Below, piece by piece: positions 10,102 to 13,249 of a stretch of DNA of 64,000 nucleotides. The position numbers and the translations under genes were made by a program. How positions within the stretch are numbered: position 1 is the first letter of the stretch; each line of letters opens with the position of its first letter. Below the pieces are notes generated by a model. The model searched no databases, had not been told where the DNA came from, and worked only from the letters and a program-made list of their open reading frames with translations. This stretch comes from Candidatus Puniceispirillum marinum IMCC1322 (GTDB lineage Bacteria > Pseudomonadota > Alphaproteobacteria > Puniceispirillales > Puniceispirillaceae). The DNA is taken from contig NC_014010.1 in NCBI RefSeq assembly GCF_000024465.1, positions 1,984,001 to 2,048,000 of the forward strand. Reading direction: 5' to 3'.

Positions 10102-11250
10102 ATGAAAATCCAGAAACTTGAAACATTCACCTCGCGCTATGTCAGCTTTGTCAAAGTCACAACCGATGATGGGAAAAGCGGTATCGGGCAGATGTCCACC
10201 TATCATGCTGATATAACGGCGCAGGTATTTCACCGGCAGGTCGCGCCCTGGGTGCTTGGAAAATCGATTGCGGGTGCGCATCATGACGATGATGAAGGGG
10301 ATGCCCGCACGGTATTTGCCGACCTGGCCGCTTTGGTGACCGAACGCGAGCATAAATTCCCCGGCTCTTATATATATAGGGCGTTGGCCGGACTTGATAC
10401 GGCGTTGTGGGATCTGGTGGCACAGGCCGCAGAGATGCCCGTTACCGCGCTGATTGGCGGACAGGCTGGCCAGCTTCGTGCCTATGCCTCATCGATGAAA
10501 CGCGATATTACGCCAGCCGATGAAGCCGCACGCTTTTGCCAGCTTCGCGACGAAAAGGGCTTTGATGCGTTCAAATTCCGCGTCGGTGCCGAATGCGGGC
10601 GCGGCAAGGATGAATGGCCCGGGCGCACCGAAGAGATTATCCCGACAGTGACCGCGGCATTGGGTGACGGCATTGTCAAAATGGTCGATGCCAATAGCTG
10701 TTTCGGGGTCGAACGCGCGATCGAAGTCGGGCATATGCTGCAAGATCACGGTGTCACGCATTATGAAGAGCCATGCCCCTATTGGCATCCGGATGACACG
10801 TTGCAGGTGACGAACGCGCTGGCTATCGATGTGACTGGCGGTGAACAGGATTGTGATATGCGCGTCTGGAAAGACATGATCGACCGCCGCATTGTCAATA
10901 TCGTGCAACCCGATGTCATGTATATGGGCGGCATCACGCCGTGGTTGCAGGTGGCCGATATGGCGAAACAGGCCGGCCTTAAATGTACCCCGCATGCGGC
11001 GAATCTGTCGCTGGTGACGGTCTGTACGATGCATGCGCTCAAGGCGATTGCGAATGCCGGTGCCTATCTGGAACTGTCAATCGAAGGCGCGGATTATTAC
11101 CCGTGGCAGGACGCCTTGTTTCGGGGCGATCCGTTCAAGGTGACGGACGGGCATGTGACGATTAGCGATACCCCCGGATGGGGGGTCGAGGTCAATCCCG
11201 ACTGGCTGGCGGCGGCAGATTATGCGGTGAGTGAGGTTGGCGGTTCGTGA
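10102..11250 (+). CDS. Enolase-superfamily enzyme, mandelate racemase subgroup
   Basis: This 382-residue protein has the capping domain (about 1-125) and TIM barrel of the mandelate racemase/muconate-lactonizing family. Visible catalytic elements are the KFR base motif at 158-160, metal ligands D196, E222 or E223 and E248 (in VDAN, YEEP and GGEQ), and the D271/H298 dyad. Their spacing closely follows mandelate racemase (D195, E221, E247, D270, H297). The Asp-His dyad fits the subgroup that contains mandelate racemase and many sugar-acid dehydratases, which abstract a proton next to a carboxylate. It is transcribed away from the PotABCD-type operon across a 171-base gap, suggesting one shared catabolic unit. 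The exact substrate (sugar acid or other 2-hydroxy acid) is unknown. No strong ribosome-binding site is visible. Confidence 0.85.
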   Translation: MKIQKLETFTSRYVSFVKVTTDDGKSGIGQMSTYHADITAQVFHRQVAPWVLGKSIAGAHHDDDEGDARTVFADLAALVTEREHKFPGSYIYRALAGLDTALWDLVAQAAEMPVTALIGGQAGQLRAYASSMKRDITPADEAARFCQLRDEKGFDAFKFRVGAECGRGKDEWPGRTEEIIPTVTAALGDGIVKMVDANSCFGVERAIEVGHMLQDHGVTHYEEPCPYWHPDDTLQVTNALAIDVTGGEQDCDMRVWKDMIDRRIVNIVQPDVMYMGGITPWLQVADMAKQAGLKCTPHAANLSLVTVCTMHALKAIANAGAYLELSIEGADYYPWQDALFRGDPFKVTDGHVTISDTPGWGVEVNPDWLAAADYAVSEVGGS

Positions 11251-11380
11251 TGAGGGGGATGGTGGCGTGAGGCGTTGCCTGTTATCCGTCGTCGTTCTGT
11301 AATTTAGCCAAGTTACGGCTGTGAGTAACTGTTTGTTAACCTGCATGTGATAGCGTTTCCCAAAACCATGGGAGTCGAAG

Positions 11381-13249
11381 ATGAAACCTCAGGAATTAAC
11401 AATCGGTCAGCTTATAAGTGAGAAACGGCAACTTCGCGTTCCAGTTTATCAAAGATCGTATGAATGGACTCCAGAAAAGCAGCTAGATAGATTTTTTGAA
11501 CAACTAAAAGATCAGGCAAAAAGGATTGAGACTGGTTCAGAAAGGCTGGTTAGCCATTATATGGGCACATTGTTGCTTATTAGTGATAGAGGTGATGTTC
11601 AAAAACTGATTCACGATATAGTTGACGGTCAGCAGCGACTAACTAGCTTTTTTCTTGCTATTGCGGCTTTGAAGGATGCCTCACATTCCTTTGGGTTGCA
11701 TTCGTTATCTAGTGAATTAGATAGACATATTTTCAACGATACTGATATTCCAGACTTTCGCTCTAAATTGGTGCCGAATGCTAAGGAACGAGGAATCTTT
11801 GATGATTTATTACGCCTTGGTTTAGAAGGTATGAAAGAAAACATCCTATATTCTAATTTCTTCGCTACAACAGGAGCATTAAAGCAAAAGGGTTCGGAAA
11901 CACCAAAGGCCTTAAGCGCATATCACTGGTTACAACAGAATTTCTCTCGGTATCTTTCTGATGGAGAGAATGAAGATATCCGGACGAAAGCAAATGCATT
12001 GCTGATGGCTCTTACTGATCAATTCAAATTAATAGTTATTGAACTAGAAGAGCATGATGACCCTCAGGTCATTTTTGAAACATTAAATACTGGAGCGGAA
12101 CCTCTCGCTGCTATGGATTTAGTGCGCAATTTTATTTTTCACCGCGCTTCAAAAGAAGGTGAAGCTAGTCAAAATGATGTCGAAAATGAATTGAGTAGTA
12201 AATTCTCGCCAGACACTTTTTGGAGAGCATCAATAAGGCAAGGACGTTTTAACAGAAAACGCTTAGACCACTATCTAACACATATGCTGGCGGCTGAGAT
12301 GGGGAAAGAAATCTCCATTCATGAATTATATAAAGAATATAAAAGTTTTGCTGATAATTATTATGGTGCGCACAGTGTTGTAGATGAAGTGAAAACACTC
12401 ACCAAATATACTGAAACATATAAAACAATTTCAGATGGAAAGTCTTCCATCAACCTTGATTCCACAGAGTCTGACAAAGCACTTTTTTGGCTTAAAAATA
12501 CCTTAGAAGCATTTGATGTAGGAACAGCGGTTCCCATAATATTTGTTACTGACACATTACCGAATATTACCGATCATCAGAAAGCCGAAATCTACAATGC
12601 AATTGAGAGTTTTATTGTGAGGCGTGCCGTTTGTGGTTTGACGACAATGGGCCGTAATTTGTTTTTCGCAAGTATTGCTAGAAAGCTCAAAAGCAATCCT
12701 TCATCCGGATTTATACTTGATGTTCTAAGACAGTCAGATTCAGATACGACTAGATTTCCTGATAATGATGAGTTTCGTAAAGCATTTTTTGAGAAAGAAG
12801 TTTACAAAACTTTGCGATCAAAAAGAGTTGGACTTTTGCTTCGTCGAATAGAGCAACAAACCCTGACTGACCATGATGAGCGCGATAATTTAGCTGACAA
12901 CTTAACGGTTGAACATGTTATGCCCCAGAAATGGAATGAGCATTGGCCATTGCCAAATGGAGATTTTTATTCTTCAAGTGAGGTATATAGCTCTGAAATG
13001 AAGAAAGTGGCCAATCAAAGAGAGAGTTTAATTCATACGTTTGGAAATCTGACGCTTTTAGCAAGCAAGACTAATCCGGCGTTAGGTAACGATAACTTTG
13101 AAATCAAAAAACAAAAGCGTCTTGGGATTTCAAAACTCAAAATGAATTTAGAAATATCGAATGAAGAAGTATGGGATGTAGAGCAAATTCTTTCACGAAC
13201 CAAACGGTTGTTTAATCAAGCAGAAAATATTTGGCGCACGGTCAGATAA
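11381..13249 (+). CDS. DUF262/DUF1524 protein, GmrSD/SspE-like putative anti-phage nuclease
   Basis: This is a 622-residue protein. The N-terminal DUF262 (GmrS-like, ParB/Srx-type NTPase) part carries VPVYQRSYEW at about 20-29 and the hallmark DGQQR at 82-86. The C-terminal DUF1524 part carries an HNH-type nuclease signature, VEHVMPQKWN near 510 and FGNLTLLASKTNPALGN near 554-570. Fused DUF262-DUF1524 proteins include type IV restriction enzymes (GmrSD, cleaving glucosylated hydroxymethylcytosine DNA) and SspE, which acts with DNA phosphorothioation. The gene is markedly A+T-rich with AT-ending codons unlike its neighbours, stands alone and has no modification genes beside it, all signs of horizontal gain. 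A GGGAGTCGAAG ribosome-binding site precedes the ATG. Family is certain; target specificity is unknown. Confidence 0.88.
   Translation: MKPQELTIGQLISEKRQLRVPVYQRSYEWTPEKQLDRFFEQLKDQAKRIETGSERLVSHYMGTLLLISDRGDVQKLIHDIVDGQQRLTSFFLAIAALKDASHSFGLHSLSSELDRHIFNDTDIPDFRSKLVPNAKERGIFDDLLRLGLEGMKENILYSNFFATTGALKQKGSETPKALSAYHWLQQNFSRYLSDGENEDIRTKANALLMALTDQFKLIVIELEEHDDPQVIFETLNTGAEPLAAMDLVRNFIFHRASKEGEASQNDVENELSSKFSPDTFWRASIRQGRFNRKRLDHYLTHMLAAEMGKEISIHELYKEYKSFADNYYGAHSVVDEVKTLTKYTETYKTISDGKSSINLDSTESDKALFWLKNTLEAFDVGTAVPIIFVTDTLPNITDHQKAEIYNAIESFIVRRAVCGLTTMGRNLFFASIARKLKSNPSSGFILDVLRQSDSDTTRFPDNDEFRKAFFEKEVYKTLRSKRVGLLLRRIEQQTLTDHDERDNLADNLTVEHVMPQKWNEHWPLPNGDFYSSSEVYSSEMKKVANQRESLIHTFGNLTLLASKTNPALGNDNFEIKKQKRLGISKLKMNLEISNEEVWDVEQILSRTKRLFNQAENIWRTVR

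What the first reader, a model, noticed from the sequence alone, without database searches (positions are those of the whole stretch)
11381..13249. Isolated A+T-rich GmrSD/SspE-like DUF262-DUF1524 gene as a one-gene defence island
The fused protein has both the DGQQR motif of DUF262 and an HNH-like DUF1524 C-terminus, so it looks like a complete nuclease of the modification-dependent (type IV or SspE-like) kind. It stands alone between metabolic genes, with base composition and codon choice clearly unlike its neighbours, and no modification or DndB/SspBCD genes beside it. A lone SspE-like protein would need phosphorothioation genes elsewhere in the genome; otherwise it should attack modified phage DNA by itself. 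This is the best candidate for an accessory system here.
Basis: partly seen in the sequence, partly recalled or inferred. Interest (0 to 1): 0.7.

Follow-up and report, generated by a model that had tools for sequence, protein, structure and literature searches.

The report
Lone single-chain GmrSD-type restriction nuclease gene
A marine bacterium carries one complete, recently acquired gene for a known kind of enzyme that most likely cuts chemically modified phage DNA; it is an ordinary new member of that enzyme family, not a new system.

Summary
The ORF at 11381-13249 (+, 622 aa) is an intact fusion of GmrSD_N (DUF262) and GmrSD_C (DUF1524). All nucleotide-binding and HNH residues are present. 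It is the most A+T-rich of 50 long ORFs in the window, and it is absent from all 60 other genomes of its family.

By sequence and tree it falls with the biochemically tested single-chain E. coli GmrSD (29.6% identity over the whole length), not with the phosphorothioate-linked DndI (18%). SspE models match weakly and mostly the first ~100 residues. Lone genes are common among its relatives. Only 12 of the 80 best genomic homologue loci have a type I HsdM nearby, and none has DndC.

The genome does contain a DndC-type gene, paired with a second, distant DUF262-DUF1524 protein 1.19 Mb away. No DndD was found, against positive controls that rang. Ordinary phosphorothioation, and with it SspE- or DndI-like action of the window gene, is therefore unlikely.

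The gene sits beside a conserved DegT block whose outer side differs in every relative. Here the tRNA-Gly normally about 200 bp from that block is 73 kb away, past a 30-kb integrative element.

Verdict: new member of a known kind (type IV, GmrSD). Which modification it recognises is unknown.

The parts
11381..13249 (+). single-chain GmrSD-type (DUF262-DUF1524) nuclease gene, 622 aa, intact
11370..11374 (+). GGGAG, ribosome-binding-site-like, 6 bases before the ATG
   Evidence: read directly; not tested
11402..12139 (+). GmrSD_N / DUF262 domain (residues 8-253), ParB/Srx-type NTPase and sensing half
   Evidence: Pfam PF03235, E 3.5e-29; ParB-like weak fold matches
11624..11638 (+). DGQQR motif (residues 82-86), nucleotide hydrolysis motif
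   Evidence: invariant in 32 sequences; aligns with D83-R87 of DndI
12755..13216 (+). GmrSD_C / DUF1524 domain (residues 459-612), HNH nuclease
   Evidence: Pfam PF07510, E 9.2e-26
12911..12916 (+). E511-H512, the (E/D)H of the HNH site
   Evidence: aligns with D507-H508 of E. coli GmrSD and E507-H508 of DndI; H invariant
13046..13075 (+). GNLTLL...N part of the HNH site (N556, N565)
   Evidence: both invariant in 32 sequences; N565 aligns with N541 of DndI
10102..11250 (+). left neighbour: mandelate racemase / muconate lactonizing enzyme family
   Evidence: Pfam PF13378, PF02746
13305..15420 (-). right neighbours: DegT-type aminotransferase and GFO/IDH/MocA oxidoreductase, start of a block conserved across the family

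Best explanation
It is a stand-alone, single-chain type IV (modification-dependent) restriction enzyme of the GmrSD family, acquired horizontally. The N-terminal DUF262 half binds and hydrolyses nucleotide through DGQQR and senses modified DNA. This licenses the C-terminal HNH half (E511/H512, N556, N565) to cut incoming phage DNA that carries modified bases, most likely modified cytosines. It needs no partner methylase because unmodified host DNA is not a substrate. Shown here: domain content, intact motifs, full-length relationship to an E. coli protein matching the tested GmrSD, fold, foreign composition, absence from relatives. Inferred: activity, modified-DNA dependence, and the particular modification.
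For: Pfam GmrSD_N and GmrSD_C. Best PADLOC model is the type IV enzyme model, full length, 250.7 bits; an E. coli prophage protein scores 1516 bits on that model. That E. coli protein has 629 aa, lies at tail-fibre genes and carries D507, H508, C517, N522, N528 and N535 at the published positions of Eco94GmrSD (PMC4437046). The window protein is 29.6% identical to it over 604 columns, against 18.1% to DndI, and groups with it, apart from DndI and the second own DUF262 protein (support 0.893, midpoint root). AlphaFold model pLDDT 88 aligns over the whole chain with DndI and SspE and, more weakly, BrxU. A lone arrangement is common: none of the 80 genomic homologue loci has DndC within the DNA held (10 kb or less each side) and 12 have HsdM. 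Absent from 60 of 60 family genomes.
Against: The best fold match is the phosphorothioate-linked DndI (Z 24.5) and not the type IV enzyme BrxU (Z 13.8). The modified-DNA dependence of the whole clade rests on very few tested members. Several relatives lie inside type I restriction operons (L032, L034), so some members may have another role. No expression or activity evidence exists. Its genome encodes three C5-cytosine methyltransferases with catalytic motifs visible on reading, so any recognition of 5-methylcytosine would have to spare those sites.
Confidence: 0.75

Rival explanations
1. DndI-like nickase: it attacks DNA lacking phosphorothioate marks, and the host is spared by its own marks.
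For: DndI (9JFL) is the best structure match by profile and by fold. The sulphur-sensing patch P23/Y25/Q26 of DndI aligns with P21/Y23/Q24 here. A DndC-type gene is present elsewhere in the genome.
Against: P and Q are invariant in the 32-sequence family alignment (Y is Y or F there), and all three are also in the E. coli GmrSD-like protein, so they do not discriminate. DndD was not found although three control records rang; DndE was not found either, but without a positive control. The DndC gene has its own, different DUF262 partner. Only 18% identity to DndI and a separate branch.
Confidence: 0.08
2. SspE-like nickase that is switched on by phosphorothioate marks made by SspABCD elsewhere in the genome.
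For: Shared domains and fold (7dri Z 23.3, 7drr Z 22.9).
Against: SspE models score at most 66 bits, best over residues 10-102. DUF4007, which I recall from memory as an SspB domain, was not found, but that search had no positive control. The protein is 622 aa against 771 for a solved SspE.
Confidence: 0.05
3. RloF-like accessory of type I restriction loci: a member of the branch that works with, or is regulated by, HsdMSR rather than sensing modified bases.
For: Two plasmid relatives, including the most similar one (L032, 34%), lie inside hsd operons and a third lies near one; L043, in the same small tree group, also has HsdM and HsdS. The association of GmrSD homologues with type I systems and the name RloF are published (PMC4619093).
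Against: No hsd gene beside the window gene. Other members of its own tree group have none next to them: L041 and L042 none found, L040 about 5 kb away.
Confidence: 0.1

Closest known systems
Eco94GmrSD / E. coli CT596 GmrSD (type IV restriction enzymes)
   Same: Single chain of nearly the same length (622 and 629 aa), both domains, DGQQR and (E/D)H...N...N motifs, 29.6% identity over the whole length to an E. coli protein matching Eco94GmrSD at all six mutated positions
   Different: Chromosomal, not in a recognised prophage; E511 in place of D507; substrate untested
BrxU (GmrSD-family enzyme of a BREX island)
   Same: Domain order and overall fold (Z 13.0-13.8)
   Different: No sequence match to it was reported in the PDB searches; no BREX genes beside the window gene
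DndI (IscS-DndBCDE-DndI)
   Same: Best fold match (Z 24.5, 541 residues) and the same key residues
   Different: 18% identity; separate branch; no dnd genes nearby and DndD not found in the genome
SspE
   Same: DUF262 + DUF1524, fold
   Different: Shorter; sequence models match weakly, mostly the N-terminal ~100 residues
RloF (type I restriction locus proteins)
   Same: Same domain family; the most similar plasmid relative is placed this way
   Different: No type I genes in its neighbourhood

Membership tests
GmrSD (type IV restriction) | DUF262 (GmrSD_N) and DUF1524 (GmrSD_C) domains, fused | tested here: met
   Both over Pfam cut-offs
GmrSD (type IV restriction) | (I/V)(I/V)DGQQRLTT, (E/D)HxxPQ, (G/A)NLxLLxxxN and NxxFxxK motifs (PMC4619093) | tested here: met
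   IVDGQQRLTS, EHVMPQ, GNLTLLASKTN, NDNFEIK in the sequence (motifs); the last T of RLTT is S here
GmrSD (type IV restriction) | Full-length relationship to a tested GmrSD | tested here: met
   29.6% over 604 columns to a 629-aa E. coli protein that carries all six Eco94GmrSD positions mutated in PMC4437046; identity of that protein to Eco94GmrSD itself not measured
GmrSD (type IV restriction) | Cuts glucosyl-5hmC/5hmC DNA, not unmodified DNA | not testable with these tools
   Needs biochemistry or phage plating
BrxU | Encoded within a BREX locus | tested here: not met
   Neighbours are metabolic genes
DndI | Encoded with dndBCDE | tested here: not met
   No dnd gene beside it; DndD not found in the genome with positive controls; one DndC gene 1.19 Mb away
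DndI | Sulphur-sensing patch P23/Y25/Q26 | tested here: inconclusive
   Residues present but shared with the E. coli GmrSD-like protein and the family at large
SspE | SspBCD modification genes in the genome | tested here: inconclusive
   DUF4007 (recalled as SspB domain) not found, but no control rang; SspC and SspD not searched on their own
SspE | Full-length match to SspE models | tested here: not met
   At most 66 bits in pieces, best piece residues 10-102
RloF | Lies between hsdS and hsdR of a type I locus | tested here: not met

The most novel reading that the evidence does not exclude
The two DUF262-DUF1524 nucleases of this genome and its orphan DndC-type sulphur enzyme form a split, minimal sulphur-based defence lacking DndD, in which the window enzyme reads or is restrained by a mark made by DndC without the usual partners.
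Probability: 0.04. Interest if true: 0.65.

Novelty: new member of a known kind. Interest (0 to 1): 0.2.

Why it matters
It adds a clean, partner-free GmrSD-type enzyme in an ocean bacterium of the SAR116 type, a group whose phages and their DNA modifications are little studied. The genome appears to encode several C5-cytosine methylases, so if the enzyme is active its specificity should exclude those marks. That makes it a modest but usable lead for finding GmrSD enzymes with narrower specificity.

Tried and rejected
Mobile-element signs at the gene's own ends: no convincing terminal repeats and no tRNA in the window. A viral-contig search with the single protein found no close relative; with an alignment, prophage and viral relatives at 30% identity or less appeared. 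NCBIfam gave no match. DUF4007 and DndE searches in the genome were negative but had no positive control, so they carry no weight. The fold ranking (DndI above BrxU) was considered as evidence for a sulphur-linked role and rejected as weak, because sequence and tree point to GmrSD and a shared fold shows no function. A search for relatives of a 709-aa protein at C1:407067-409196 in phage records found nothing.

Full report
What is there. The window lies at C1:1984001-2048000 of a complete 2,753,527-base genome. The size fits Candidatus Puniceispirillum marinum IMCC1322 (SAR116), which is my recollection and was not tested. The ORF at 11381-13249 (+) encodes 622 aa from ATG to stop and has a GGGAG before the start. 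Pfam finds GmrSD_N at residues 8-253 and GmrSD_C at 459-612, both far above cut-off. The ORF has GC 0.378 and GC3 0.305, while nine nearby genes have GC3 0.47-0.63, and it is the most A+T-rich of 50 long ORFs in the window.

Integrity. In an alignment with 31 homologues from other genomes, D82-G-Q-Q-R86, H512, N556, N565 and K576 are invariant. Aligned with the solved DndI, DGQQR matches D83-R87, H512 matches H508 and N565 matches N541. R87 and N541 are the residues whose mutation lowered ATPase or nuclease activity in DndI (PMC11662687). The gene does not look decayed.

Which family. The best PADLOC model is the type IV enzyme model, full length, 250.7 bits, closely followed by one of the 'Orf5' models (249.7 bits). 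DndI itself scores 944 bits on another Orf5 model, PDLC02701, on which the window protein reaches only 115.9. The near-tied model PDLC02693 also matches the E. coli GmrSD-like protein at 255.7 bits, so it does not separate the two. That E. coli protein has 629 aa, lies by tail-fibre genes, scores 1516 bits on the type IV model, and carries D507, H508, C517, N522, N528 and N535, exactly the positions mutated in Eco94GmrSD (PMC4437046). I treat it as that enzyme or a near-identical relative; the accession was not matched. The window protein is 29.6% identical to it over its length and 18.1% to DndI. In a FastTree phylogeny of 56 sequences it groups with L040-L043 and a Gemmobacter plasmid protein (support 0.93), inside the branch that holds the E. 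coli protein and apart from DndI (support 0.89; midpoint root; the sequences were chosen for similarity to the window, so the tree is a guide only).

Structure. An AlphaFold model from 32 sequences has pLDDT 88 and pTM 0.80. It matches DndI (Z 24.5), SspE (Z 18-23) and BrxU (Z 13-14), with nothing else above Z 5. The large rmsd values show that domain angles differ. DndI being the top match is noted against my preferred reading, but DndI, SspE and BrxU share one architecture, and the sulphur-sensing residues of DndI (P23, Y25, Q26) also occur in the E. coli GmrSD-like protein.

Phosphorothioation in this genome. A DndC-type gene over its curated cut-off exists at C1:809183-810340 (coordinates). 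Right behind it is a second DUF262-DUF1524 gene (C1:807446-809173, 575 aa, 37% GC), the only other DUF262 gene found in the genome. The two nucleases are only about 20-22% identical. DndD gave no hit in the genome while three control plasmid records rang. In most of the control neighbourhoods dndC sits with dndD and others; one Hymenobacter plasmid also has dndC without annotated partners. The DndC gene is the only one among 136 genomes of the order. Without DndD ordinary phosphorothioation is unlikely, so an SspE-like enzyme would stay idle and a DndI-like enzyme would be expected to harm the host. A modification-dependent enzyme fits without further assumptions.

Neighbourhood and origin. 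None of 60 other genomes of the family has the gene; DUF262 genes of any kind occur in 12 of 136 genomes of the order. To the right, DegT, the GFO oxidoreductase and a YbaK-type gene are kept together in all 29 relatives examined. Beyond the DegT stop almost every relative has something different; in 17 of 21 a tRNA-Gly(GCC) follows within a few hundred bases, and in one more ARAGORN calls it tRNA-Ser. In this genome that tRNA is at C1:1924100-1924174, about 73 kb from DegT. A 213-bp direct repeat (98%) at C1:1924166-1924378 and C1:1954209-1954421, ending 9 bases inside the 5' end of the tRNA, brackets a 30-kb element with a tyrosine integrase, a SIR2 + HerA pair and a TrwC relaxase. A further 42.9 kb separates the outer leader copy from DegT, and the window gene is the DegT-side end of that stretch. 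Whether the 42.9 kb came in with the gene, or the gene came alone, is not resolved; the contrast in composition with its immediate left neighbour (GC 0.568) favours separate arrival.

Context of relatives. Among the 80 genomic loci kept (the best of 387), 12 have a type I HsdM gene within the DNA held (10 kb or less each side), and none has a DndC gene. This was a tblastn check with a few query proteins, so other defence genes were not counted. Viral and prophage copies are common. Published surveys report the same: fused GmrSD genes in mobile regions, often near type I systems (PMC4619093). A lone gene is not unusual for this branch.

A constraint on specificity. The genome has three C5-cytosine methyltransferase genes with the PC and ENV motifs visible in the translations. 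If they are active, the window enzyme should not accept 5mC as broadly as BrxU does (PMC8565348). This is inference.

Verdict. A real, intact, horizontally acquired member of the GmrSD family, most likely a stand-alone type IV restriction enzyme. It is ordinary in kind; its substrate is unknown.

Noticed in passing
same genome, C1:807446-810340 (L127:17446-19173 and L120:1405-2562, both -): Two-gene A+T-rich cassette: DndC-type sulphur enzyme (385 aa) followed by a DUF262-DUF1524 nuclease (575 aa, 37% GC), between metabolic genes; DndD was not found in the genome. Only DndC-type hit among 136 genomes of the order.
   Followed up: partly
same genome, C1:1924166-1954421 (L143-L145): About 30-kb integrative element bracketed by a 213-bp direct repeat that ends inside the 5' end of tRNA-Gly(GCC); carries a tyrosine integrase, a SIR2 + HerA pair matching the known defence models, and a TrwC relaxase.
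   Followed up: partly
same genome, C1:1429907-1437797 (L130): 38-40% GC stretch with proteins matching MzaB, MzaC and MzaE defence models next to a C5-cytosine methyltransferase: a probable Mza-type system.
   Followed up: partly
same genome, C1:1497714-1511911 (L129): 40% GC stretch with another C5-cytosine methyltransferase (C1:1504606-1505787) among unnamed genes.
   Followed up: no
same genome, C1:407067-418218 (L131): Stretch, phage-like by my reading of the translations, with a C5-cytosine methyltransferase (C1:411855-413141); one of its proteins (709 aa) has no match in the phage records.
   Followed up: partly
L003-L031, outer side of the DegT gene: The stretch after DegT and tRNA-Gly(GCC) differs in nearly every relative, and L008 has an integrase-like reading frame there: probably a shared insertion hotspot of the family.
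   Followed up: partly
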